42,615 nucleotides of DNA from a virus. The DNA is taken from positions 1 to 42,615 of the IMG/VR virus record IMGVR_UViG_3300020020_000086; one strand, given 5' to 3'. The translations under genes and the position numbers were made by a program. This document shows, one piece after another, positions 1-42,615 of this stretch. Position 1 is the first letter of the stretch, and the number at the start of each line of letters is the position of its first letter. The notes under the pieces were generated by a model. It saw nothing but the letters and a program-made list of their open reading frames with translations, made no database searches and was not told the origin of the DNA.

Positions 1-7
1 CTCTTAT
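1..7. other. Seven unmatched bases at the left end
   Basis: These bases precede the exact terminal repeat but differ from the seven bases that precede the same repeat at the right end (42483-42489). They create the TAA stop that apparently ends the portal gene at 4-6. In the right-hand copy the frame continues through Tyr-Gly-Thr. They are most simply an assembly or read-end error rather than a real stop. Confidence 0.7.
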
Positions 8-834
8 GCAGGCTTCGGACACGGGAAAAAATGCGTCAGGTCGAGGTGCGGGTCGTCCTCGTCCAGAATGTTCTCGCAGCCCTTTGCCACCCAGACGACG
101 CGCTGCGACGGCCGGTCCCAGATCTCCCAGAACTTGGCGCGCTGCCGGTTGTCTGCGCCGCCGACGTCCTTGGCCTCGCGGTTAACCGTGTACTCGGCGC
201 GCTGGTACTCGTCGCCGGAGTGCTTGTGGAAACGCTTGCGCGCCTCGCCGCGTGTCAGGTAGCTCGCCGCGGCGACCCACGTCACCTCGGGCCAGTTGCG
301 GCTGATGCTGTGCAGGAAGTCGCGGCGGTCCTTGAAGTCGATGCAGATCTTCTCGCTGCTGTACCGCTTGTCGCCCTTGCCACTCTCGTAGCGGCACCAC
401 GCAACGCCGCGGCAGTTCAGCGCCACGTCGTCGCGCACCAGCAGCATCAGGTCGTTGATGCGCGCCAGATCGAACGCGACATTGGCGCACCGCTCCGCCA
501 GCTCGGACGCCGCCAGCGGCACCGGGCGCTGGTCCTTGAACTTGGGCACGACGACAGGCTCGGGCTTCTTCGCGTAGATCGACGGCTTCACGACCTCGCA
601 ATTGGCCCAGAACATCGCGAACTCCTTGTCGCGAGACATGCTCGATAGCCGCTCAAGGCTGGCATACAGCTTGTCGATGCGGTCGCAATGGTCGTTCCAG
701 CCTGAAAATACGCCCTCGCTCTCCTCCAGCAGGTTGATCCACGCCTTCGCGCTCTTCGGCTCGACCGCCGGGTTAAACTCGTGATCTTCGTGCCGCAGAT
801 CTTTCTCGATCGGCTTGTCGGCGTCGTCAGCCAT
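4..834 (-). CDS. Portal protein, N-terminal part (split by window ends)
   Basis: Encodes about the first 276 residues of the portal, the dodecameric ring at the capsid vertex through which DNA is packaged and ejected. The apparent stop at 4-6 lies in the seven unmatched end bases. Across the circular junction the frame continues into 42489-41001, giving about 771 residues, close to P22-class portals (about 725 aa). The role rests on size, on position between terminase and capsid genes, and on the C-terminal half (long Gln/Lys-rich coiled coil). The start is the ATG at 834. The gene begins 8 bases after the stop of the 115-aa gene upstream, in the same late transcript. Confidence 0.85.
   Translation of the reverse strand: MADDADKPIEKDLRHEDHEFNPAVEPKSAKAWINLLEESEGVFSGWNDHCDRIDKLYASLERLSSMSRDKEFAMFWANCEVVKPSIYAKKPEPVVVPKFKDQRPVPLAASELAERCANVAFDLARINDLMLLVRDDVALNCRGVAWCRYESGKGDKRYSSEKICIDFKDRRDFLHSISRNWPEVTWVAAASYLTRGEARKRFHKHSGDEYQRAEYTVNREAKDVGGADNRQRAKFWEIWDRPSQRVVWVAKGCENILDEDDPHLDLTHFFPCPKPA
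8..133. repeat. Terminal direct repeat, left copy (126 bp)
   Basis: Bases 8-133 are identical to 42490-42615, which I compared directly. The repeat lies inside the portal gene, and joining the two copies restores one continuous reading frame. This marks a circular or circularly permuted molecule whose ends overlap in the assembly. An exact overlap of this length is typical of a k-mer assembler, so it should not be read as the phage's physical terminal repeat. Confidence 0.95.
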
Positions 835-1190: not shown

Positions 1191-1440
1191 CGTAGAACCC
1201 CATCCTGTGCTTGCCGACCTCGCGCGCAAGGATGCGCAGCTCGCGGGCGGCATCGGGATACTTCTGCATCAGCCGCATGAACTCGCCGGTCGACTTGACG
1301 ATCACCGGCAGCACGCGGGGGATCTCCAGCGGGCGCGTCTTCAGCCACTCCGTCAAGGGGTCGAGCGCCAGTACCACGTCGGTCTCCACAACGTGCACCA
1401 GCGCCTTGCTGGGGATCATCGGCAGCTTGGAGGGGGTCAC
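1180..1440 (-). CDS. Small conserved hypothetical protein after terminase (86 aa)
   Basis: Not recognised. The start is the GTG at 1440, which overlaps the terminase stop in a GTGA arrangement and implies translational coupling. The protein (VTPSKLPMIPSKALVHVVET...) is mostly helical with a basic C-terminus and contains no catalytic motif I can name. It overlaps the next gene by 11 bases. Tight coupling on both sides suggests a function tied to packaging or head assembly, but nothing in the sequence proves that. Confidence 0.7.
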   Translation of the reverse strand: MTPSKLPMIPSKALVHVVETDVVLALDPLTEWLKTRPLEIPRVLPVIVKSTGEFMRLMQKYPDAARELRILAREVGKHRMGFYDGR

Positions 1441-2801
1441 AGCCGTAGCCCTCCCGCGCGATCGACCGGCGGCGGCGGAATGCGCCAGCCTTCCTGCTTC
1501 GGCTCCGGCGTCACGCGCCGATGCACGCCGCGCCACGACAGCGACAGATACCTGAACGCCGCGGCCGGGTGCGACGTCCAATCGTGCACGTCGGTGGCGC
1601 GGAACGCCTTCTTCTCATCGTCCCATTCGCGCCGGTATTGCTCCAACGCATCGAGGCCGCCGGTCTCGCACCGCGGATGAAACACGCAGTACGGAAACGT
1701 GCGCCTGCACGCATTGATACCGTCGGCGAACGTCGCCATCGGCACCAGCATGGGATTGAGCCCCAGCGCCTTCATGGTCTCGACGCGGGTCTTGCCCGAT
1801 CCCCACTCCTTGATCTTCGCGTCGTGCGGCACGAAGTCAGTGCCGCGCACCCAACCGTGCTCGCGTTCCTTGCGCTCGATCACCTCGGCATAGTGCTCGA
1901 CGCCTGCGCCGCTCGCCGCGTAGTGGTCGAGCACGACCAGCTGTGCGCCTTGGATCTGCCACCACCAGATCGAGGTGTCTTCGCGCACCCCCAGATCCCA
2001 AGCCCGGTGCACTGGCTCGCCGGGTATTGCGGCGACGTCAAGCACCCGTCCCTCGGCGCGAACGGCTGCCATCTCCATGGCGAAGTAGGCACCCAATATG
2101 CTGGCGTTCCAATCACAGTAATACTCCTGCCGGAATTGAGCGTTGCCCATGTCCTCGCCGTACAGCGCAGAGTATTCCCTCAAGGTTTCGGCAAGAGCTT
2201 GGTCGGAGACCTCGCCGGTATCCTTGGCTGTGAGCCGCTCGCTGAACCACTCGGGGCTTCGCTGGGCATGATTAAAAAGGGCGAACGCATGATTGCGTCC
2301 TCGGGGAGTAGAGACAAACGTCGCCCAACCGTTGTTCTCCTCGACCATCGGGCGGTGGTAGGCCCATGCGCTTGGGTTCGCCAGCGCATATTCGGAGTAG
2401 ACGATGCCAGCGACGCTGGCTCCGACCGTAGTGTTATAGGTGTCGGACCCAATACATTGCCATGTTGATCCGTTGCGGAAGCGGATGAACATCTCGCTAT
2501 CATTCGTGTTGGCTCTGAACTTTTCGGGGAAGGCTTCATCGATACGTCGTCGTCCGGTGTGCGCATTGATCGCTGTCCATATTGCCTTGCGGGCCTGTGC
2601 ATATTCGGGGAGGCAGTGCCAGTAGTTTCCGACGCGCTCGGTCAGCGCGATCATGGTGTGATGCAGCAGCACGTCGTCCTTGCCTGCGCGGCGGTGCCAG
2701 ACCGCGATCGCGCGCTTGCCGCCGTCACGCAAATACTTCCACAGCGCCATCTGATGCGGCCGCGGCGTCCACTTGTTGTACGGCAGCTCGATGTCGATCA
2801 T
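1437..2801 (-). CDS. terL: Terminase large subunit (454 aa)
   Basis: The DNA-packaging motor: an N-terminal ATPase and a C-terminal RNase H-fold nuclease. The Walker A-type motif WHRRAGKD lies at residues 35-42, the hydrophobic Walker B strand ending IVYSE at 133-137, and the coupling motif STPRG at 164-168. The nuclease half has the characteristic WDLG (Asp269) followed by REDTS, and HD at about 326-327 (PHDAKIKEWG). The start is the ATG at 2801. The frame is open for 62 more codons upstream, but those are Arg/Ser-rich noise overlapping other genes. The ATG overlaps the stop of the 41-aa membrane protein (ATGA). Length is normal for the family. Confidence 0.95.
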   Translation of the reverse strand: MIDIELPYNKWTPRPHQMALWKYLRDGGKRAIAVWHRRAGKDDVLLHHTMIALTERVGNYWHCLPEYAQARKAIWTAINAHTGRRRIDEAFPEKFRANTNDSEMFIRFRNGSTWQCIGSDTYNTTVGASVAGIVYSEYALANPSAWAYHRPMVEENNGWATFVSTPRGRNHAFALFNHAQRSPEWFSERLTAKDTGEVSDQALAETLREYSALYGEDMGNAQFRQEYYCDWNASILGAYFAMEMAAVRAEGRVLDVAAIPGEPVHRAWDLGVREDTSIWWWQIQGAQLVVLDHYAASGAGVEHYAEVIERKEREHGWVRGTDFVPHDAKIKEWGSGKTRVETMKALGLNPMLVPMATFADGINACRRTFPYCVFHPRCETGGLDALEQYRREWDDEKKAFRATDVHDWTSHPAAAFRYLSLSWRGVHRRVTPEPKQEGWRIPPPPVDRAGGLRL

Positions 2802-2923
2802 AGCGCCCACTTCCCAACAGCGACGCCGACGATGAGTGCCATGGCGAGCAAGAACACAAGCACCCAGAACGCACGACCGATATCGCGAGCCAACACCAAG
2901 CTGAAGAAGTCTGGCCCGATCAT
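2798..2923 (-). CDS. Small single-span membrane protein (41 aa)
   Basis: Starts MIGPDFFSLVLARDIGRAFW and is followed by one hydrophobic segment (about residues 18-36, WVLVFLLAMALIVGVAVG) and a short basic tail. The start is the ATG at 2923, fused to the preceding stop (TGATG). The stop overlaps the terminase ATG. It is the last of four consecutive tiny overlapping membrane ORFs. It could be a holin-like or spanin-like peptide or an exclusion protein; no family recognised. The perfect ATGA coupling at both ends supports its being real. Confidence 0.65.
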   Translation of the reverse strand: MIGPDFFSLVLARDIGRAFWVLVFLLAMALIVGVAVGKWAL

Positions 2924-3021
2924 CAGTCAATCCCGATCCACTGACACACGGCCTCGATCGCGAGCGGCGAGATGACGAAGCCTGCAACGAACGCCGCGAT
3001 GATGCAGAGCCAGAACATCAT
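2923..3021 (-). CDS. Tiny membrane protein (32 aa)
   Basis: MMFWLCIIAAFVAGFVISPL followed by AIEAVCQWIGID. Almost the whole peptide is one hydrophobic helix, starting at the double ATG at 3021/3018. Its start overlaps the preceding stop in ATGA form, and its stop overlaps the next ATG. Function unknown. Its place in a nest of overlapping membrane peptides upstream of terminase suggests a lysis or membrane-modifying cassette. Confidence 0.6.
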   Translation of the reverse strand: MMFWLCIIAAFVAGFVISPLAIEAVCQWIGID

Positions 3022-3179: not shown

Positions 3180-3256
3180 GACATTGCCTTCCACAAAAAG
3201 TAGCAGAGCACGATCGCACCCGACGCCACGACGTAGAGCGCGATCACGTTAGCCAT
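3176..3256 (-). CDS. Tiny membrane peptide (26 aa)
   Basis: MANVIALYVVASGAIVLCYF followed by LWKAMS: a single transmembrane helix with a basic C-terminal end. The ATG is at 3256. It overlaps the 3' end of the Acb2-like gene by 8 bases and its own stop is shared with the next GTG (GTGA). Too short for homology-based naming. The support is the unbroken chain of coupled starts and stops. Confidence 0.5.
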   Translation of the reverse strand: MANVIALYVVASGAIVLCYFLWKAMS

Positions 3257-3482
3257 CGGTCGCCTGCGGACGCGCAGCATGCTGCGCAGCCTTGCCGCGC
3301 TGCAGCCAGAACATTGCTTCCTCAAGCTTGGTGATGCACAGCGCGTACTCGCGACAAGGCGTCAACTCGCGCACGATGCGCACTGTGAGCGCGCTGAGTT
3401 GCGCGGTGAGATCGTCGGCGAGCGCGTCGACATACTCGGCCTGCGGCATCGCCGAGTTATTGGGCTGCGTGCGCGCGACCAT
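3249..3482 (-). CDS. Acb2/Tad1-hairpin-like protein, candidate anti-CBASS sponge (77 aa)
   Basis: Residues about 30-66 form two helices with the core PCREYALCITKLEEAMFW. This strongly resembles the pattern P-x-RE-x-(S/A)-L-x-(L/I)-T-x-LE-x-A-x-(F/M)W of short phage proteins carrying the Acb2/Tad1 hairpin domain. In that family, Acb2 binds cyclic di- and trinucleotides made by CBASS, and Tad1 binds Thoeris signals, stopping abortive infection. The residues after the Trp differ: WLQRGKAAQ here, against WANA-x-IAR as commonly seen, so ligand binding is not assured. The start ATG at 3482 overlaps the previous stop (TAATG). It sits in the late operon just before the tiny membrane genes and terminase. 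Assignment is from remembered family pattern, not a search. Confidence 0.65.
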   Translation of the reverse strand: MVARTQPNNSAMPQAEYVDALADDLTAQLSALTVRIVRELTPCREYALCITKLEEAMFWLQRGKAAQHAARPQATDG

Positions 3483-3715
3483 TACTTTTTCTTTCCTTCC
3501 AGAATAGTCCGAATGGTGATGCGGATATCGCCCTCGCCGTCCTCGCCGGTGACCGGCTGTGCAGGTCGGCCGTGACCGCGCTCCCACAACATCGCCGTGG
3601 CCCGCAGCCGCGTATCCTCGTTCAGGCTATTCTCGGCGATACCGGCAACCATGCGCACGGTGGTCTCGGTATAGGAGCGGCACAGCGAACGGATATCTGC
3701 TGGTACTTTAGCCAT
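3482..3715 (-). CDS. Small conserved phage protein, candidate terminase small subunit (77 aa)
   Basis: The N-terminal 50 residues follow a pattern common in phage and plasmid proteins: a helix (YTETTVRMVAGIAEN), a second helix (NEDTRLRATAMLWERG), then HGRPAQPV. This resembles proteins annotated as DUF5681-like or small terminase-like, with xxRGxGKPxQ at the end of the repeat. The C-terminus is charged (ITIRTILEGKKK). Early position in the late operon, ahead of the large terminase, makes a DNA-recognition role plausible, but I see no convincing helix-turn-helix. TAA is followed directly by the next ATG overlap (TAATG). Confidence 0.5.
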   Translation of the reverse strand: MAKVPADIRSLCRSYTETTVRMVAGIAENSLNEDTRLRATAMLWERGHGRPAQPVTGEDGEGDIRITIRTILEGKKK

Positions 3716-3886
3716 TTAGCTCGGGGGTGCCCCCCTCCTCTGCAGCTCATCGACGTCGGCGCGCAGGCGCTGAATATCGATCATGATGGCGACCAGCGCG
3801 GTTTTAATTTCGGCATTGGCGTCGTTGATCAATTTCACCGCGGCGTCGCGCTCGGTGATGAGGGGAATGATTTTGCCGTAGGCCAT
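3716..3886 (-). CDS. First gene of the late operon, coiled-coil protein (56 aa)
   Basis: Begins at the ATG at 3886 with a good Shine-Dalgarno (AGGGGAG). A longer version from 3913 is possible but has no such site. The protein (MAYGKIIPLITERDAAVKLI...) is almost all helix, and residues 33-52 read as an amphipathic coiled coil (IMIDIQRLRADVDELQRR). It lies immediately downstream of the terminator/promoter gap and its stop abuts the next ATG. Function unknown. It probably marks the start of late transcription. Confidence 0.6.
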   Translation of the reverse strand: MAYGKIIPLITERDAAVKLINDANAEIKTALVAIMIDIQRLRADVDELQRRGAPPS

Positions 3887-3962
3887 GCCCGCTCCCCTGT
3901 AGTGCCCGGCCACCCACTAAAGGGCCCTCTGCCGCCGGGCGGGCAGCCCTGAATGCAAACGC
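3887..3962 (-). promoter_or_regulatory. Probable late-operon control gap with GC hairpin
   Basis: This short gap separates the terminator of the upstream unit from the first late gene, so late transcription probably initiates here or reads through from above. It holds a GC-rich hairpin at 3921-3950 (AGGG...CTGCC / GGCAG...CCCT). I could not find a convincing -35/-10 pair, which would suit a promoter needing a phage activator. Confidence 0.35.
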
Positions 3963-4004
3963 AAAAAGGGCGCGTACGCCCATTACTGGGACATTACGCG
4001 CCCT
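3963..4004 (-). terminator. Rho-independent terminator (minus strand) ending the 4616-4042 unit
   Basis: On the minus strand the arms AGGGCGCGT and ACGCGCCCT (plus-strand 3996-4004 and 3967-3975) are perfectly complementary and are followed immediately by TTTTT. It lies 38 bases downstream of the HTH gene stop, closing the short operator-controlled leftward unit before the late operon. Confidence 0.8.
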
Positions 4005-4041: not shown

Positions 4042-4278
4042 CTAGTCTGCCTTGGGTGCGGGTGGCACCTTCGGCATGATTTCGTATGCGTCGAGGATAC
4101 GCAGCAGCAGCACGAAGCCGGGCGGCACCTCGGCCTCGCCGGATATGTAGCGGCGGGCTTGGCGGTGCGAGACGCCCAAGTAGCGGCCTGCGCCTTCCTG
4201 CGTCATGCCCAGCGATGCGATCAGCCCCCGGTACTGCCGGGGGCTGATGCTGCGCTGGTTTTGCCAGTCGTCTGTCAT
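4042..4278 (-). CDS. Small helix-turn-helix protein, candidate repressor of the palindrome regulon (78 aa)
   Basis: The central segment reads as a Cro/XRE-type HTH: helix ISPRQYRGLIASLG, then MTQEGAGRYLG-VSHRQARRYI-SGEAEVPP, with a following helix VLLLRILDAYEI. It is the second gene of the unit driven by the operator-containing minus promoter (4643-4671), its ATG overlapping the first gene's stop (ATGA). That place suggests it may bind the TAGGCC-N5-GGCCTA sites and control its own synthesis. Which protein binds the sites is inference. A second HTH protein (14858-15094) is the alternative. This fold is also seen in proteins with no repressor role. Confidence 0.7.
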   Translation of the reverse strand: MTDDWQNQRSISPRQYRGLIASLGMTQEGAGRYLGVSHRQARRYISGEAEVPPGFVLLLRILDAYEIMPKVPPAPKAD

Positions 4279-4616
4279 GCGGTCTCCTTGTTGAACTCGG
4301 CGAACTTTTTGGTATCGCGCTTGCGGGATGCCTCAGCACGCTTGACGGCGATCTGGCGGGCTTCTTCCAGCGTGCGGGTGATGGCGCGGTTGAATGCCGG
4401 GCCGTAGCCCTTGCCGTTGCGGCAGGGATTGCTGAGCAGCTCGAACGCGGGCTCACCGGCCTCAACGCTGAAGCCTACGCCGTAGGCCCCGTAGCTCTTG
4501 GGGGTGTCGGAGATCATCTGGCGGATCTCCCACATGTAGCCGCAGGCGCGGCCCTTCTGGTCGACGAAGCCGAAGTCGGTGGAGCCGGTATCGAGGGGCA
4601 GGTACTGAGTAGTCAT
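4275..4616 (-). CDS. Hypothetical early protein (113 aa)
   Basis: Not recognised. First gene of the leftward operator-controlled unit. The start ATG at 4616 is preceded by the shared leader CATCACAACGGAG. The N-terminal half looks like a compact beta fold (QYLPLDTGSTDFGFVDQKGR, then GAYGVGFSVEAG), and the C-terminal third is a basic helix (TRTLEEARQIAVKRAEASRK). Its coupling to the HTH gene suggests early expression. No catalytic motif seen. Confidence 0.75.
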   Translation of the reverse strand: MTTQYLPLDTGSTDFGFVDQKGRACGYMWEIRQMISDTPKSYGAYGVGFSVEAGEPAFELLSNPCRNGKGYGPAFNRAITRTLEEARQIAVKRAEASRKRDTKKFAEFNKETA

Positions 4617-4623
4617 TTGCTTT

Positions 4624-4636
4624 CTCCGTTGTGATG
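4624..4636 (-). promoter_or_regulatory. Shared early leader CATCACAACGGAG (copy 1)
   Basis: Minus-strand copy 7 bases upstream of the ATG at 4616. The final CGGAG is the ribosome-binding site, and the preceding CATCACAA is conserved well beyond what ribosome binding needs. Confidence 0.75.
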
Positions 4637-4642
4637 CCCCCC

Positions 4643-4671
4643 TTGTAGGCCAGCCCGGCCTAGACCGTCAA
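4643..4671 (-). promoter_or_regulatory. Leftward early promoter with operator O1 in its spacer
   Basis: On the minus strand: -35 TTGACG (4671-4666), a 17-base spacer, then CTACAA/TACAAG as -10 (about 4648-4642). The spacer contains a perfect inverted repeat, TAGGCC-N5-GGCCTA on the plus strand at 4646-4662. A protein bound there would block RNA polymerase. It is divergent from the plus-strand promoter at 4726-4755. Confidence 0.7.
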
Positions 4672-4677
4672 TCCCGA

Positions 4678-4694
4678 TAGGCCTGACCGGCCGA
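4678..4694. promoter_or_regulatory. Operator O2 (imperfect palindrome) between divergent promoters
   Basis: TAGGCCTGACCGGCCGA has the same TAGGCC-N5-GGCC(T/G)A arrangement with one mismatch in the right arm. Its centre is 32 bases from O1, about three helical turns, so cooperative binding with O1 on the same DNA face is plausible. Confidence 0.55.
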
Positions 4695-4725
4695 TAAAAT
4701 AATTCCAGAAAATATGGAATTGGGG

Positions 4726-4755
4726 TTGACGCATTAGGCCAGCCCGGCCTATCAA
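4726..4755 (+). promoter_or_regulatory. Rightward early promoter with operator O3 in its spacer
   Basis: -35 TTGACG (4726-4731), then -10 CTATCA at 17 bases or TATCAA at 18. The spacer carries TAGGCCAGCCCGGCCTA (4735-4751), identical to O1. An AT-rich stretch (AAAATAATTCCAGAAAATAT) lies just upstream and could act as an UP element. It drives the 4780-5708 genes. Confidence 0.75.
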
Positions 4756-4759
4756 GATG

Positions 4760-4773
4760 CATCAACAACGGAG
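4760..4773 (+). promoter_or_regulatory. Shared early leader (copy 2, CATCAACAACGGAG)
   Basis: Differs from the consensus CATCACAACGGAG by one inserted A. It ends 6 bases before the ATG at 4780 and lies just downstream of the operator-containing promoter, so it is near the 5' end of the mRNA. Confidence 0.7.
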
Positions 4774-4779
4774 GCCATC

Positions 4780-5040
4780 ATGGCACGCAAGTCCACCCGC
4801 CCTTCCCTCACCAATTCCGCGTACTGGCAGAAGTCCGACGCCGTTCTGCGCTTCATCCTCAAGGATGCCAGCGCCGCCGCCGATTGCATGCGCGGCATGG
4901 ATGACGCCGCGGAGGCCAAATACCTTGAACAGATGGCCGATGCCGAGACCGTGCTGGCCTCCCGCAGAGGAGTGTCCGCCGTCATCGACCACCCCACCCA
5001 CGCCAACTGGGCCCCCGCCCTTGAAGGTTTTGAAGACTGA
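4780..5040 (+). CDS. Hypothetical early protein (86 aa)
   Basis: Not recognised. First gene of the rightward operator-controlled unit. MARKSTRPSLTNSAYWQKSD opens a basic N-terminus, followed by helices with conserved-looking ACMRGMDDAAEAKYLEQMAD spacing and an acidic end (ALEGFED). No domain named. The small size, early promoter and shared leader fit a host-takeover or regulatory protein, which is inference from context only. Confidence 0.7.
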   Translation: MARKSTRPSLTNSAYWQKSDAVLRFILKDASAAADCMRGMDDAAEAKYLEQMADAETVLASRRGVSAVIDHPTHANWAPALEGFED

Positions 5041-5080
5041 CCCGGCCGGGCGACCCGGACCTGCCGCCCATCACCACCAC

Positions 5081-5093
5081 CATCACAACGGAG
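5081..5093 (+). promoter_or_regulatory. Shared early leader CATCACAACGGAG (copy 3)
   Basis: Exact 13-base copy ending 6 bases before the ATG at 5100, here within an operon rather than at the mRNA start. It follows a GC-rich partly palindromic stretch (CCCGGCCGGG). Confidence 0.75.
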
Positions 5094-5099
5094 ACCACC

Positions 5100-5423
5100 A
5101 TGACCACATCGAACCTGACCGCCCTGATCGACGCCTTCGCGGCCCTGAAGCAGAAGCAGGCCGTGCTGGAGGCGGAAGAGACCGCGCTGAAGGCTGCGCT
5201 GGCCGACGTTCCGGCGGGCAATTACGAGAGCGAAAACTACCGCCTGTCGATCATCGATGGCGTGCGCAAGACCGACGACAAGGAACTGGCCGCCAAGGTC
5301 AAGGAAGTCGTCGCGGAGTACAAGCTGTCGCTGACGCCGCAGTACCTGTGCGCCCACACAGTCAAGACCGACACCCGGACCCACCGGATCGGCCTGCCCA
5401 CCGGCAAGGATCTGGCGCAGTAG
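5100..5423 (+). CDS. Hypothetical early coiled-coil protein (107 aa)
   Basis: Not recognised. The N-terminal 40 residues form a heptad-rich coiled coil (LIDAFAALKQKQAVLEAEE). A beta segment follows (NYESENYRLSIIDGVRKT), then a charged helix (KELAAKVKEVVAEYKLSL) and the tail THRIGLPTGKDLAQ. Length and layout resemble small early proteins of other siphoviruses and podoviruses that I cannot name. It carries the shared leader just upstream, in the operator-controlled unit. Confidence 0.7.
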   Translation: MTTSNLTALIDAFAALKQKQAVLEAEETALKAALADVPAGNYESENYRLSIIDGVRKTDDKELAAKVKEVVAEYKLSLTPQYLCAHTVKTDTRTHRIGLPTGKDLAQ

Positions 5424-5483
5424 CGCCAGATCGCCACCCCTAAAATTCACCCCCTAAAACCTAAAACCCACCGGAGTACCACC

Positions 5484-5708
5484 ATGCCCACCCTCAAGCT
5501 TGGCTCAAAATCCAAGGTTATTTCGGCCCGGCCCGACCGCCACCCGGCCTACACTGTCATCGCGTTCCGCACCCCTTTCGGCACGCTGGACCGTGTCCGC
5601 ATCCCCTACGAAGAGGCCACGACCGACCGCATCTCCGATGCCGTTGCGGGGCTCGCCCTGCGCTACTCGATGGCGGAAGGCGACAGCATCACGATCGAAG
5701 TCGAATAG
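5484..5708 (+). CDS. Hypothetical early protein (74 aa)
   Basis: Not recognised. A predicted all-beta small protein (MPTLKLGSKSKVISARPDRH, then YTVIAFRTPFGTLDRVRIPY) ending in an acidic strand (DSITIEVE). The start ATG at 5484 has a CCGGAG site but not the shared leader. It is the last gene of the rightward unit. Its 3' end overlaps the opposing gene by 20 bases, and its transcript is closed by the terminator at 5768-5796. Confidence 0.7.
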   Translation: MPTLKLGSKSKVISARPDRHPAYTVIAFRTPFGTLDRVRIPYEEATTDRISDAVAGLALRYSMAEGDSITIEVE

Positions 5709-7501: not shown

Positions 7502-9589
7502 CTATTCATTCTCGTCTCCGGCGACCCCTATCTCGTCCCGCCCCTTGGCTGTCAGGCGGTACTTTCCGCCCCGGTGTTTGACCACCAGCTTGTCGTTCCG
7601 CAGCCGCTCCACGATGCGCTGGACCCGGTACTTTTGCGGTTCGCCGTCGGCCATGAAGCCAGCCCGGCTGGCGAGATTAGAGAACGACGCCCGCGGGTCG
7701 GCATGCATCAGCCGCAGCACCCGGTTCTCGTCTGCCTCCTGCACGTTCTCCGTCATCTCGACTGTCGTGTCCGAGATCGGCTTAGCCACCACGCTGGGCA
7801 TCAAGCGCCCCTCGGCGTCCACCACGCGCGCGCTCTCCGCGCCCGCCAATTCGAACGAGCACGGGTTGAACTCGGGCCCCCGGAACTTGCCCTGCCAGTG
7901 CAGCGAAACATGCTTGTCGCCGTCGCTCCACAGCGTCAGGTTCCCGTCGACCTCATTCAGGAAGGCCGACCCGCCCATCGGCAGCAGGTTGTCGCGTGGC
8001 GCGTTCTTGACCGGGTGGCAATTGACCAGAACGGTCGGCTTGCCGTTGAGGAACGTGAGCTGCCGCAATTGCCGGGCATAGGCACCCTGCTGGCTGTTGC
8101 TGTTGGTCTCGTCGCCGGGGAAGTAAGCCGCCGCGGTATCGACCATGACCAGCATCAGGTCGGGGATGGCGTCGGCCGCGGCCCGGATCGCGGGCATGCT
8201 GGCCTCGATGTTCACCACACCGGCAACAAACCGCATTTTCAGATCTTCAGCGACAAAGCCGTAGGCCTCCGCCAGCACCAGATAACGGGCCCGGATATCG
8301 TCCGGGTTCTCCCCTGCCAGCAGCAGGACAGTGCCACTCTTGACCGTGCGGCCGTGCATGTCCTGCCCGCGCGCGACGCACTGGCCGATGTACATGGCCA
8401 CCGCGGTCTTGCCGTGCCCGGTCCGGGCCGTCAGCGAGTACAGGTAACCCCGCTGCAGCATGCCGTCGATCAGATACGCCGGAGGCGTGAACCCGGCGAC
8501 GAACTCGGCCGCCGTCAGCACCGTACAATTAGGAGCCGCCGCGGCCGGGTCTATTTGTACGGCCGGGCGTTGTGCAGCACCCGAAAAAATGCCCGCAGCT
8601 TTTCGTTGCTCCTTGGGTGGCCGGGTGGCAGCCGCCTGCGCGATCTCGACATGCCACTTGGCAAACGCCGCCCGCCACTTGGCGTCGAACTCGGACCAGC
8701 CCCGGTTCTCGCGTTCTAGCCCGCCCTCCTTGGTCTCGCCGGGGAGGGGCACCTGCACCTCGACGTTGCGCAGGTAGTCCGCCCACGTCGCATTCAGCTC
8801 GGCCTGTCCGGCTGGGATCGGGCTGTCGATGTAGTAGCCGACCAGCGCCGCCCAGATCATGTCGGCCATGTAGGCCTCGCGACCGTCGATGCGCCGCCCG
8901 AAGGCCGTGAAGGTCTGGCCGGGATTTTGGTCTGTTTGAGCGGTTTGACTGATTTGATCGATATGAGCGGTTTGATCAGTCGGGCCGGGAACGCCACGCT
9001 CGCCGGTCAGCTTCTCCAGCTCCTCGATCAGCCAGTCCGGTATGACAAGGATCTCGACCTCCCACGGGGCCCGGCCGGGCAGCCATTCGTAGGCCCGCCC
9101 GGAAGCGTGCCGGGTCGGCGGCAGCACCGCAAAGCCGCCCTTGCCGCGGATGTCGACGTCGTGCCCCGTGGACGCATTGGACAGCATCCAACCCGCAGGA
9201 CATTGGAAGAACATCTGGCGGCCGCCGCCGCCGGTCCGCTGCTCCCACGTCTCCAGCTCGAGCCCGTTGTTGTTGACGTCGAGAACCCGCTGCCACCATG
9301 CCGCCGCCTTGCCGCCGACCTTGTAGGTGTCCAGATCCACCATGATCTTGCTGCCGGAGCACGGCCCGGTCAGCACGCCCATGTCGTCCATGCCGACATA
9401 CTTGCCGCCGATCGCGTACCAGCTGTCGAACAGGGTCTGCGGCACCAGCTCGTTCTGGTACTCGCGCCAGCCCGCCAGCATCGGCCGCTTGTCGCGGCAT
9501 GGCACCACCTGCAGGCCGCACGCGCGATACATCTCCGCCCACTGGGCGGGACCGGCAAAATCAGGATCGAAGCTTGGGAGCGGAGGCAT
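7502..9589 (-). CDS. Prim-Pol / RepA-like helicase fusion replication protein (695 aa)
   Basis: A likely replication initiator with primase-polymerase and ATPase parts. The N-terminal Prim-Pol-type domain (residues about 15-190) shows AEMYRACGLQVVPC-DKRP, an acidic pair IMVDLD (85, 87), TGGGGRQMFF (Arg where a His is common) and VDIRGKGGFAVLPPT. A RecA/AAA ATPase follows, with Walker A GHGKTA (about 391-396) and Walker B LMLVMVD (about 478-484). The C-terminus is a winged-helix-like DNA-binding region. ATG 9589 has a strong GGAGG. The stop is next to the iteron region. The linker (210-225) carries an imperfect 27-bp tandem repeat. Confidence 0.85.
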   Translation of the reverse strand: MPPLPSFDPDFAGPAQWAEMYRACGLQVVPCRDKRPMLAGWREYQNELVPQTLFDSWYAIGGKYVGMDDMGVLTGPCSGSKIMVDLDTYKVGGKAAAWWQRVLDVNNNGLELETWEQRTGGGGRQMFFQCPAGWMLSNASTGHDVDIRGKGGFAVLPPTRHASGRAYEWLPGRAPWEVEILVIPDWLIEELEKLTGERGVPGPTDQTAHIDQISQTAQTDQNPGQTFTAFGRRIDGREAYMADMIWAALVGYYIDSPIPAGQAELNATWADYLRNVEVQVPLPGETKEGGLERENRGWSEFDAKWRAAFAKWHVEIAQAAATRPPKEQRKAAGIFSGAAQRPAVQIDPAAAAPNCTVLTAAEFVAGFTPPAYLIDGMLQRGYLYSLTARTGHGKTAVAMYIGQCVARGQDMHGRTVKSGTVLLLAGENPDDIRARYLVLAEAYGFVAEDLKMRFVAGVVNIEASMPAIRAAADAIPDLMLVMVDTAAAYFPGDETNSNSQQGAYARQLRQLTFLNGKPTVLVNCHPVKNAPRDNLLPMGGSAFLNEVDGNLTLWSDGDKHVSLHWQGKFRGPEFNPCSFELAGAESARVVDAEGRLMPSVVAKPISDTTVEMTENVQEADENRVLRLMHADPRASFSNLASRAGFMADGEPQKYRVQRIVERLRNDKLVVKHRGGKYRLTAKGRDEIGVAGDENE
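8938..8975. repeat. Imperfect 27-bp in-frame repeat in the Prim-Pol/ATPase linker
   Basis: GAGCGGTTTGA occurs at 8938-8948 and again at 8965-8975, exactly nine codons apart. The protein reads TAHIDQISQ-TAQTDQNPG, a polar linker between the two enzymatic domains. A similar Thr/Gln/Asn-rich tract, NAENAKNAQTQ, occurs in the scaffold protein. Confidence 0.7.
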
Positions 9590-9691
9590 CAGAGGCCTCC
9601 TGAATTGTTGTCCGGCCGGGCCGGGACTGCTATGAACATGGTTGTGGTTTCCTTTGGTTTTGCTTTCCAGAGCGCCAATGGGTTCTACACC

Positions 9692-9723
9692 AAAGGCGGG
9701 GGCCCCCAAGCCCCCGCCTTTTT
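9692..9723 (+). terminator. GC hairpin with T5 between replication genes
   Basis: GGCGGGGGC (9695-9703) pairs with GCCCCCGCC (9710-9718), followed on the plus strand by TTTTT and on the minus strand only by TTTGG. All neighbouring genes run on the minus strand. It may therefore weakly attenuate between the SSB-like gene and the helicase, or block antisense transcription. Confidence 0.6.
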
Positions 9724-26024: not shown

Positions 26025-26459
26025 TCAGTATCGCCCTAATTGGCCCGGCATGCCGGGGATCTGCGTTCCGGGCAATTGCCCGACTTGCGGCGGCTGCTGT
26101 CCGACCAGCCCCGGTACATTCGGCGGCGGCGGCAGCGGCGTCCCGCCCATCTGCGGCGGCATGCTCTGCGGCGGAGCCATCGGCGCGCCCTGCCCCACTC
26201 CCATCCCGAAGGCCGGACCTTGCGCGCCGCCGGGTGCTGGCGGGGGTGCCTGCATCGGCGGCGGCATGGCCGGACCGCCAGCGCCCTGCATGTTTGGGGA
26301 CGCAGAAACGCCGGACGGCACGATGGGGGATTGCGTGGGGGCACCCGCGCCCATGCCGGGCATCTGGGTGCGCGGTGGCGGGTTCTGCACGTTCAGCAGC
26401 GCCTGCGTGATCGCGTTGCGCTGCATGTTCATGCCCGGATTGGTCGAGCCATATGGCAT
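26025..26459 (-). CDS. Proline/glycine/methionine-rich virion-region protein (144 aa)
   Basis: Low-complexity protein with about a quarter proline (PPPMQAPPPAPGGAQGP, PPPPNVPGLVGQQPP). Only the first 30 residues (MPYGSTNPGMNMQRNAITQA, LLNVQNPP) look helical and specific. It ends one base before the S74 protein's start and overlaps the GNAT-like gene by one base. It is probably an intrinsically disordered structural or assembly peptide. Its real length is supported by the tight overlap. Confidence 0.65.
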   Translation of the reverse strand: MPYGSTNPGMNMQRNAITQALLNVQNPPPRTQMPGMGAGAPTQSPIVPSGVSASPNMQGAGGPAMPPPMQAPPPAPGGAQGPAFGMGVGQGAPMAPPQSMPPQMGGTPLPPPPNVPGLVGQQPPQVGQLPGTQIPGMPGQLGRY

Positions 26460-26947
26460 TACGCGGCCTCCTCATGCGGGGCGTCGAGCACCTCATGGTG
26501 CCGCAGCCGCTTGTTGAACCTGTTGGCCATCCAGTCCTCGACCGTCAGCGTGCACAGGACGCCGTCACGCTCGCGACCAAACATCCGCGGCACATTGATG
26601 AATGCGTAGTCGTACACGGCGAGTTGCCGCAGCAGCCGTGTGTTATCGGCTGGTGTCTTCTGGAACAGCATCTGGCAGCCGCACTGCAAGAAAGGATAGC
26701 TGTACATCCTGCGAATAGTCTCGCGGGTCAGCCATTGTTTCCCCGGCAAAGCCGCGCCGTGCATCTCAATGGTTTGTGATAGGTCGTCGTAGCTTGTGTA
26801 GACCAGCCCGGCGATCAGCAGCCCTGTCTCATCAATCACGCCGATGGCGCGCGCGTCCGGGCCGTATGAATGGCCTCCCGCATGCGGGATCATCGCGGCG
26901 ACAAAGCCGCAGACCTCCATCGGATGATCGTAGACGTATCGCAGCAT
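26459..26947 (-). CDS. GNAT-fold acetyltransferase-like virion-operon protein (162 aa)
   Basis: The sequence has the beta-alpha layout of phage GNAT-like proteins: AIGVIDETGLLIAGLVYTSY, IEMHGAALPGKQWLTRETIR, RMYSYPFLQCGCQMLFQKTP, NTRLLRQLAVYDYAFINVPR, RDGVLCTLTVEDW. I recall relatives in many podovirus virion operons. I do not see the classical R/Q-x-x-G-x-G/A acetyl-CoA loop; QKTPADNT takes its place. So catalysis is uncertain. The start is set at ATG 26947 (GTG 26950 is possible). Confidence 0.7.
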   Translation of the reverse strand: MLRYVYDHPMEVCGFVAAMIPHAGGHSYGPDARAIGVIDETGLLIAGLVYTSYDDLSQTIEMHGAALPGKQWLTRETIRRMYSYPFLQCGCQMLFQKTPADNTRLLRQLAVYDYAFINVPRMFGRERDGVLCTLTVEDWMANRFNKRLRHHEVLDAPHEEAA

Positions 26948-27336
26948 CACAGCCCTGCCAGCTTCCTTGCAATCGCGCTGCGCCGCGCGTCCCAGTCATA
27001 CTTGCCGCCCTGCGACCACACCCGCAGCGCCTCCGGGTCGACCGCGCCCTTGCCGCTGTAATCGAGGTTCAGTGGGATCGCTCCGCCGCCATACTGATCA
27101 CTGGGTGCCGACCCGCGATCGGCCATCGCCGGGAACGGCATGCGCGTATCCTCGATGCCCTGCGGCGTCATCGAGCGGTACATGGCCGTCCAGTCCGCCA
27201 CCGCCTTCTCTGACGGCGCGTAGCCCTTGATGAATGCCGGGGCGAACAGCCCGCCCATGGCTCCGGTCGGGTCGTAGTTCTGGTACAGGTCCGGCACTGC
27301 TGCCTCGGCCGGAACGGGGACTGGCACGTCAGGCAT
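26947..27336 (-). CDS. Hypothetical virion-region protein (129 aa)
   Basis: MPDVPVPVPAEAAVPDLYQN, with Pro-rich and Gly/Tyr-rich stretches (FAPAFIKGYAPSEKAVADW, QYGGGAIPLNLDYSGKGAV). Not recognised. ATG 27336 lies 9 bases after the nozzle stop, and its stop is coupled to the GNAT-like gene. Conserved position between nozzle and GNAT suggests a minor tail or assembly part. Confidence 0.65.
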   Translation of the reverse strand: MPDVPVPVPAEAAVPDLYQNYDPTGAMGGLFAPAFIKGYAPSEKAVADWTAMYRSMTPQGIEDTRMPFPAMADRGSAPSDQYGGGAIPLNLDYSGKGAVDPEALRVWSQGGKYDWDARRSAIARKLAGL

Positions 27337-41004: not shown

Positions 41005-42615
41005 GCGCGACCTCCACCCGGCGGCTGCGTCATCTTGAATTGATGCTGCGCCGCGCGCTCGGCACTGCGCTGCGCCATGTCGGTCTGCTTCAGGTTGGCC
41101 TGCTGCACTCCCAATTGCGCCTTCTGCCGCGCCAGCTCCATGTCCTGCGTCTTCTCGATGACGTGCGCCTGATGGCTCTCGCGGTTCTGCATCAGCTTTT
41201 CGTTCTGGATCTGCTGCTTGCCCTGCAGCTCGACCTGCTTGTCGCGCGCGCCCATCCCGGCGATCGCTCGATCGTTAGCCAGCTTCTGCTGATGCTGCTT
41301 ATCCTTCTGCACCAGCTCGTCCTGCTTCACCTTCAGCTCGGCCGCGTCGGACATCTTCTTCTGTTCGATCTTGGCCATCTCGATGTCTTTCATCAGCTTG
41401 AGCTTCTCGGCCTCCGGATTGGGCGGCGGCTGCGAGCCCTTCTGCTTCATCAGCTCGACCAGCTCGTCGACCGCGCCACTCAGGCTGCGCCCGGCGCGGA
41501 ACGGAGCCAGCGAGAATTTCAGCAGCTCGCCACAGAACGGCGCGGTCTTCGGCTCGCCCGCGATCATCTGTGCCAGTTGCGGCAGCAGCGTCGACAGCAC
41601 ACCGACAAACTCGGTGCGCCGCTGCTTCTCGGCGTTCTCGTCGGTCTGGATCGTTGAGTCGGTCTCAATGTCGAGCACAAACGTGCGGCCGCGGGTGTCG
41701 CGCAGGAACTTCAGCACCTGCTCGATCGTCGGCTTTTCCGCCAGCTGATTGATGGTCTGCGCGCCAGCCTCCTGCGCCTTCTCCATCTGCTGCATGATCT
41801 CTTGCGCCTGCTCGGGGTTCTGCTGCGCCATCTGCTGAACTTGCGGGTTTTGCTTCAGCATCTCCGCCTGCTGCTTCTGCATGTTGAGCTGGCGCTGCAC
41901 CTCCATGATCTTCTCTCGCACCATCGCCTGCGTCGGCAGGTCGGTCTGGCTCATCTCGACAATGGTGGTGTCCTCAAACTCGTCGAACATCACCTCGATC
42001 GTGATCTCGACCAGATCACGCGCCAGCCGCACCAGCTCGTTCTGCTTGTCCTTGATGCGCTTGCCGCCGTACTCACCCTTCATCTGCTGCGCGCCCAGCG
42101 TCTCGTTCGGATCGGTCGCGCCGCGCATGATGTCGGCCAGCCCCATGATCTGGTAGATGTCCTCGATCACCTGCTTACGCAGCGCCACCAGCGCCGTGAT
42201 GGTCTGCGCAATCATGTCGATCGGCAGCCAGATGATCACTTCCTTGCTGCCGCCAAACGCAGCCCAGTTGCTGATCGGCACCAGCATGCGGCCGGGCGTG
42301 TGCGCCGTCACCGCAGCCTGCACGGCCTCGCTCAGCTCGGCACCACCGGCCGGGTAGAAGCCCTTCGCCTCCAGCGAATAGCTCAGCGCGTGAATGCGCC
42401 CGGTCAGCAGGTTGATCTCGTCGAGCTGGTCGCGATACTGCATCACGTCCGGCACCGGCACCAGCGAGCCGCGCTGCACCGTCCCGTAGGCAGGCTTCGG
42501 ACACGGGAAAAAATGCGTCAGGTCGAGGTGCGGGTCGTCCTCGTCCAGAATGTTCTCGCAGCCCTTTGCCACCCAGACGACGCGCTGCGACGGCCGGTCC
42601 CAGATCTCCCAGAAC
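41001..42615 (-). CDS. Portal protein, C-terminal part (runs across the circular junction)
   Basis: Continues the frame from 834-8: the repeat region encodes the shared segment ending HFFPCPKPA and then YGTVQRGSLVPVPDVMQYRD. Residues in this half include the portal core (LLTGRIHALSYSLEAKGFYP, WLPIDMIAQTITALVALRKQ, QIMGLADIMRGATDPNETLG) and a long Gln/Met/Lys-rich coiled C-terminal region (MEVQRQLNMQKQQAEMLKQN, KMSDAAELKVKQDELVQKD) such as the barrel or crown of podovirus portals. Together with 8-834 it forms about 771 residues. The stop is coupled to the 618-aa gene. Confidence 0.9.
   Translation of the reverse strand, partial: FWEIWDRPSQRVVWVAKGCENILDEDDPHLDLTHFFPCPKPAYGTVQRGSLVPVPDVMQYRDQLDEINLLTGRIHALSYSLEAKGFYPAGGAELSEAVQAAVTAHTPGRMLVPISNWAAFGGSKEVIIWLPIDMIAQTITALVALRKQVIEDIYQIMGLADIMRGATDPNETLGAQQMKGEYGGKRIKDKQNELVRLARDLVEITIEVMFDEFEDTTIVEMSQTDLPTQAMVREKIMEVQRQLNMQKQQAEMLKQNPQVQQMAQQNPEQAQEIMQQMEKAQEAGAQTINQLAEKPTIEQVLKFLRDTRGRTFVLDIETDSTIQTDENAEKQRRTEFVGVLSTLLPQLAQMIAGEPKTAPFCGELLKFSLAPFRAGRSLSGAVDELVELMKQKGSQPPPNPEAEKLKLMKDIEMAKIEQKKMSDAAELKVKQDELVQKDKQHQQKLANDRAIAGMGARDKQVELQGKQQIQNEKLMQNRESHQAHVIEKTQDMELARQKAQLGVQQANLKQTDMAQRSAERAAQHQFKMTQPPGGGRA
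42490..42615. repeat. Terminal direct repeat, right copy (126 bp)
   Basis: Identical to 8-133. It is preceded by CCCGTAG rather than the CTCTTAT seen at the left end. The right version keeps the portal frame open, so it is the biologically credible one. Confidence 0.95.

What the first reader, a model, noticed from the sequence alone, without database searches (positions are those of the whole stretch)
3249..3482. Acb2/Tad1-like hairpin protein (candidate anti-CBASS sponge) inside the late packaging operon
The core PCREYALCITKLEEAMFW closely fits the Acb2/Tad1 hairpin pattern of proteins that sequester cyclic oligonucleotide alarm signals. Here it is nested, by overlapping start/stop codons, between a candidate small terminase and tiny membrane genes. 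That is late, virion-stage placement rather than the early timing expected for a counter-defence gene. The residues after the Trp (LQRGKAAQ) differ from the common ANAxIAR, so ligand range may be different or lost.
Basis: partly seen in the sequence, partly recalled or inferred. Interest (0 to 1): 0.8.

Follow-up and report, generated by a model that had tools for sequence, protein, structure and literature searches.

The report
Slimmed-down anti-immunity sponge beside terminase
A soil phage carries, wedged between its two DNA-packaging genes, a small protein of the Acb2/Tad1 family, which mops up bacterial alarm molecules; this copy keeps the core hairpin but has lost the arm that grips two-letter alarm rings, so if it works it probably catches a different ring.

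Summary
The gene is real: 77 aa, minus strand 3482→3249, good ribosome-binding site, overlapping stop/start codons on both sides. It passes the curated Pfam cut-off for PF24729 Acb2/Tad1 hairpin (28.4 vs 27 bits) and folds as a two-helix hairpin with or without an alignment. It belongs to the family but is divergent. The N-terminal arm with the aromatic that stacks on cyclic dinucleotides (T4 Tyr8) is missing, and so is the post-Trp ANAAIAR. The R-x6-T pair (R44/T51), present in all family branches compared except T4, is kept. My best guess is a sponge with lost or reduced dinucleotide binding, possibly trinucleotide-selective. No binding data exist, and loss of function is not excluded.

Family genes also lie beside terminase in Mycobacterium phage Bernal13, between capsid genes in two relatives of this phage, and within 2.5 kb of terL in 11 of 20 distinct soil-phage contigs of another branch (3.2 expected). 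In this lineage the terS–terL gap is a variable cargo slot; among the genomes found, only the window phage and a 97%-identical relative carry this gene there. Staphylococcal CBASS is triggered by RNA from exactly that junction, which makes co-expression a testable idea.

The parts
3249..3482 (-). Acb2/Tad1-hairpin protein, 77 aa: disordered residues 1-13, helix 14/15-39, turn TPC, helix 44-69
3482..3715 (-). TerS-like protein, 77 aa; homologues upstream of terL in 75 of 80 related loci
1437..2801 (-). terminase large subunit, 454 aa; 61.7% identical to that of Rhizobium phage RHph_I3_18
3176..3256 (-). 26-aa single-helix membrane ORF whose start overlaps the hairpin gene's stop; also present in L002
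3018..3194 (-). 58-aa small ORF (GTG start), no relatives found among the 80 terL loci
2923..3021 (-). 32-aa hydrophobic ORF (internal ATG of a longer frame), no relatives found
2798..2923 (-). 41-aa hydrophobic ORF just upstream of terL, no relatives found
3716..3913 (-). 65-aa helical ORF upstream of the TerS-like gene; a few weak relatives in the same place
3968..3981 (-). terminator-like hairpin (GGGCGTACGCGCCC TTTTTGCG) upstream of this gene group; weak, 1.3 sites expected by chance in the region
4042..4278 (-). HTH_3 regulator, 78 aa, conserved in 43 of the loci searched (window included)

Best explanation
The gene encodes a divergent member of the Acb2/Tad1 hairpin family of phage sponges, acquired as cargo in the variable slot between terS and terL and expressed with the packaging genes. 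SHOWN: family match, hairpin fold (predicted), gene context, missing dinucleotide-pocket arm, retained R44/T51. INFERRED: it assembles through its hairpins as Acb2 and Tad1 do and sequesters a cyclic oligonucleotide made by a host defence system (CBASS-like, or type III CRISPR that signals with cA3), blocking the effector. Because the N-terminal aromatic/basic arm is absent while the R-x6-T pair is kept, I expect lost or poor cyclic-dinucleotide binding and, more likely than not if it binds anything, binding at the three-fold trinucleotide-type site.
For: PF24729 above the curated cut-off, which the functionally proven T4 Acb2 also matches. Hairpin predicted at pLDDT 87.6 with an alignment and 80.7 without. 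Top BFVD matches are named Acb2/Tad1 hairpin proteins; T4 Vs.4 is among the PDB matches (Z 7.3, rmsd 5.6, 69 aligned). R44/T51 align with R67/T74 of PaP2 Acb2, with the R-E...T of Tad1, with 9PTQ (Acb2 homolog 43) and with hairpin-only 49-aa members. No residue aligns with T4 Tyr8; T4 Y8A and F82C abolish or reduce nucleotide binding (PMC12657218). 34 shared codons show 3 silent and 0 replacement changes. Close relatives of this phage carry other PF24729 genes between capsid genes.
Against: No binding or infection data. The Pfam score is only 1.4 bits above the cut-off. A two-helix hairpin is structurally generic and Foldseek gives no significant match. The motif after Trp is replaced by LQRGKAA, which could disturb oligomerisation. 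That R67/T74 contact trinucleotides is from my memory of Cao et al. 2024, which is not held. T68 of T4 (equivalent to T51) also affects T4 Acb2 affinity (PMC12657230), so T51 is not specific to a trinucleotide site. Only one incomplete second copy supports purifying selection, and its last codons overlap the next gene.
Confidence: 0.55

Rival explanations
1. A full-range Acb2-like sponge that still binds cyclic dinucleotides through replacement residues, for example Tyr17 at the start of helix 1, in place of the standard arm.
For: The family is very divergent in the arm; Tyr17 lies at the start of helix 1; T4 Acb2 uses a residue (Phe82) at its C-terminus that most relatives lack.
Against: 57 of 67 distinct relatives keep the simple aromatic-His-x-Pro-type motif, and nothing in this protein aligns with it; the first 13 residues are predicted disordered.
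Confidence: 0.15
2. A decayed or repurposed hairpin that no longer binds nucleotides: a small helical protein now serving packaging or capsid assembly, or doing nothing.
For: Loss of the arm and of ANAAIAR; position between terS and terL; weak Pfam score.
Against: The most conserved family block (RE...TKLEEAMFW) is intact; 3 silent and 0 replacement changes against L002; the gene is absent from the other terL relatives, so packaging does not need it.
Confidence: 0.25
3. About position only (compatible with the sponge reading): the location has no functional meaning, because the terS-terL gap is simply an easy insertion site for small cargo genes.
For: The gap ranges from -11 to about 2,400 bases and holds many unrelated ORFs; 30 of 75 loci have at most 11 bases there.
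Against: A different branch of the family is itself over-represented near terL (11 of 20 representatives within 2.5 kb, 3.2 expected), and Bernal13 gp1 lies directly before terS-terL. Representatives are not phylogenetically independent and the 2.5 kb limit was set after looking.
Confidence: 0.5

Closest known systems
PF24729 Acb2/Tad1 hairpin domain proteins of actinophages and soil phages (e.g. Bernal13 gp1; homologues in L041, L055)
   Same: RE...TKLEEAMFW core, hairpin, R-x6-T pair; Bernal13 gp1 also abuts the terminase genes
   Different: They keep the RFxYHxP-type arm and ANAAIAR; this protein has neither
Acb2 of phage T4 (Vs.4, PDB 7UQ2) and Pseudomonas phage PaP2 (p26, PDB 8H2J)
   Same: Same Pfam family for T4 Acb2; helix hairpin; T51 = T4 T68 = PaP2 T74; R44 = PaP2 R67
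   Different: The aromatic of the dinucleotide pocket (T4 Y8, F82) is missing here; T4 lacks the Arg
Hairpin-only 49-aa PF24729 proteins in Bacilli/Clostridia/Gastranaerophilales/Tenericutes MAG contigs (L172, L174, L175, L177)
   Same: No N-terminal arm; Leu after the Trp; R-x6-T kept
   Different: Shorter, different hosts, function unknown
Acb2 homolog 43 (PDB 9PTQ, six chains in the entry)
   Same: Best PDB match of the family profile; the alignment to it starts after the arm
   Different: Full sequence and ligand data were not available to me
L179-type soil-phage branch (SFNPS...AQTAYEEAAMWAVKAAT)
   Same: PF24729 hit, R-x6-T, late-gene placement, present in close relatives of this phage
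   Different: Keeps an arm (RVRxSFNPS); only about 22% identical to this protein

Membership tests
PF24729 Acb2/Tad1 hairpin | Sequence score above the curated gathering threshold | tested here: met
   28.4 bits vs 27, E 1.9e-6
PF24729 Acb2/Tad1 hairpin | Two antiparallel helices forming a hairpin | tested here: met
   Predicted H15-39, H44-69, pLDDT 87.6; same without alignment
Acb2 (cyclic-dinucleotide sponge) | N-terminal arm with stacking aromatic (T4 Tyr8) and basic partner | tested here: not met
   No equivalent residue in P0001; T4 Y8 is needed for binding
Acb2/Tad1 trinucleotide site | Conserved Arg and Thr seven residues apart at the start of helix 2 | tested here: met
   R44/T51 align with PaP2 R67/T74 and Tad1 R/T; that these contact cA3 is recalled, not verified
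Acb2/Tad1 sponges | Hexameric assembly | not testable with these tools
   Only monomer prediction available
Acb2/Tad1 sponges | Binding of cyclic oligonucleotides without degradation, and protection against CBASS/Thoeris | not testable with these tools
   Needs purified protein and infection assays
Tad1 | N-terminal beta-sheet domain before the hairpin | tested here: not met
   Residues 1-13 have no predicted structure
PADLOC defence proteins | Match to a defence-system model | tested here: not met
   No hit

The most novel reading that the evidence does not exclude
Acb2/Tad1-hairpin sponges are selectively placed at the terS-terL junction so that the antidote is co-transcribed with the RNA that triggers CBASS (cabRNA is made from the terS-terL junction in staphylococcal phages, PMC10686824). 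The gene in this window would be a dinucleotide-blind, trinucleotide-selective version of such a junction sponge.
Probability: 0.12. Interest if true: 0.8.

Novelty: new variant of a known kind. Interest (0 to 1): 0.5.

Why it matters
If the protein binds, it would be a natural sponge stripped of the dinucleotide pocket, useful for separating the two binding sites of the family and for knowing which defence signal a soil-phage host uses. The recurrent packaging-proximal placement of the family, together with the published origin of the CBASS-activating RNA at the terS-terL junction, gives a testable link between when a phage is sensed and where its antidote gene sits.

Tried and rejected
Plus-strand reading of 3249-3482: one search was run on the wrong strand before I noticed the ORF is on the minus strand. 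NCBIfam and PADLOC: no hits. Foldseek on PDB and VIA-align: generic helical hairpins dominate and T4 Vs.4 ties with unrelated rows, so fold similarity alone is not used as evidence. Papers by Cao 2024, Huiting 2023 and Li 2024 are not held. Searching the upstream regions of the other terL relatives for a hairpin gene in the terS-terL slot found none beyond L002. Exact end repeats were first missed because the scan was too narrow; the true terminal overlap is 126 bases starting at base 8.

Full report
THE GENE. The reported peptide is encoded on the minus strand, 3482→3249, 77 aa. It has a purine-rich ribosome-binding site (GGAAGGA) upstream of its ATG. Its start overlaps the stop of the 77-aa ORF before it, and its stop overlaps the start of a 26-aa membrane ORF. 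A second, incomplete copy (L002, contig 97% identical in TerL) has 34 codons of overlap with 3 silent and no replacement changes, and the same downstream membrane ORF followed directly by terL.

FAMILY. Pfam PF24729 (Acb2/Tad1 hairpin) scores 28.4 bits against a curated cut-off of 27; phrog_1454 E=1.8e-5. T4 Acb2 itself scores 71.4 bits with the same model. An alignment with 25 viral relatives shows an invariant RE...TKLEEAMFW. A profile from it finds Acb2 homolog 43 and Tad1 in the PDB. AlphaFold2 gives two helices, 15-39 and 44-69, at pLDDT 87.6, and nearly the same without any alignment (pLDDT 80.7). BFVD neighbours are annotated Acb2/Tad1 hairpin proteins, though with weak E-values. The PDB comparisons are swamped by generic helical hairpins.

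WHAT IS MISSING AND WHAT IS KEPT. In 57 of 67 distinct relatives a simple search finds the aromatic-His-x-Pro-like arm before helix 1. The window protein has no residue equivalent to T4 Tyr8. Tyr8 and Phe82 of T4 Acb2 are needed for nucleotide binding (PMC12657218). The ANAAIAR segment is LQRGKAA. The Arg and Thr seven residues apart at the start of helix 2 (R44, T51) are kept; they align with PaP2 R67/T74, Tad1, 9PTQ and all other branches compared except T4, which lacks the Arg. I recall from Cao et al. 2024 that these residues line the trinucleotide site at the three-fold axis, but the paper is not held, so this is a lead and not a result. Hairpin-only 49-aa members without any arm exist in Firmicutes-type and Gastranaerophilales MAG contigs and pass the Pfam cut-off, so arm loss is a natural variant of the family.

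CONTEXT. The window is a near-complete circular podovirus-like genome: 126 bases from position 8 repeat at the end and the portal gene is split across the ends. TerL relatives are Rhizobium and Bradyrhizobium phages and soil contigs. In 75 of 80 terL relatives a homologue of the 77-aa TerS-like ORF precedes terL; members hit PHROG small-terminase families weakly. The gap between the two genes ranges from -11 to 2,388 bases and is at most 11 in 30 of the 75 loci. The hairpin gene sits in this variable slot only in the window and L002 (L002 is cut before terS, so its upstream neighbour is not seen).

PLACEMENT IS NOT AN ANOMALY. Among 30 records of relatives, three carry another PF24729 gene. 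In two of them it lies between homologues of the capsid-region genes at 37.3-38.5 kb of the window. That L179-type branch is abundant in soil phages (207 loci). In one of its loci (L237) the gene abuts terL directly. Of 27 contigs over 15 kb in which a PHROG terL could be located, 13 have the gene within 2.5 kb of terL, all on the same strand. After collapsing near-identical contigs this is 11 of 20 against 3.2 expected by uniform placement. The A1-type relatives, closer to the window protein, show 4 of 15. Bernal13 gp1 directly precedes terS-terL, another relative lies between lysin B and holin, and a Mycobacterium phage (Darrell) carries it beside thymidylate synthase and DNA polymerase genes. 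So the family has no single early position. The enrichment test is post hoc and the contigs are not phylogenetically independent.

A POSSIBLE REASON. CBASS in Staphylococcus is triggered by cabRNA transcribed from terS-terL in several phages whose cabRNAs share no sequence (PMC10686824). A sponge gene in that very junction would be co-expressed with such a trigger. This is inference; a neutral cargo-site explanation fits equally well for this window.

VERDICT. It is a new variant (arm-less, post-Trp altered) of a known kind.

Noticed in passing
window 1-133 and 42490-42615: The last 126 bases repeat window bases 8-133 and the portal gene is split across the ends, so the record looks like a circularly complete genome.
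   Followed up: yes
L088:1263-1445, L112:1726-1914, L099:3606-3809: Another small helical ORF (MRDGDPHKSVxIxEMFxRF...LRDIMxKAD) recurs in the terS-terL slot of relatives; no family hit, function unknown.
   Followed up: partly
L183-L262: A very abundant Acb2-family branch (RVRESFNPS...AQTAYEEAAMWAVKAAT) in soil phages, often adjacent to terL, almost absent from the GenBank phage collection (only partial Flavobacterium phage hits).
   Followed up: partly
L172, L174, L175, L177: 49-aa hairpin-only PF24729 proteins in Tenericutes/Bacilli/Clostridia/Gastranaerophilales MAG contigs, among the smallest members of the family seen here.
   Followed up: partly
window 26459-26950: Acyl-CoA N-acyltransferase-like gene (phrog_4470, E 5.5e-33) among the virion genes.
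   Followed up: no
window 7502-9709: Prim-Pol plus AAA_25 domain fusion as the likely replication protein.
   Followed up: no
window 4042-5708: Short plus-strand ORFs (4780-5708) face away from the minus-strand HTH gene group (4042-4616), so a divergent promoter region is possible near 4.7 kb.
   Followed up: no
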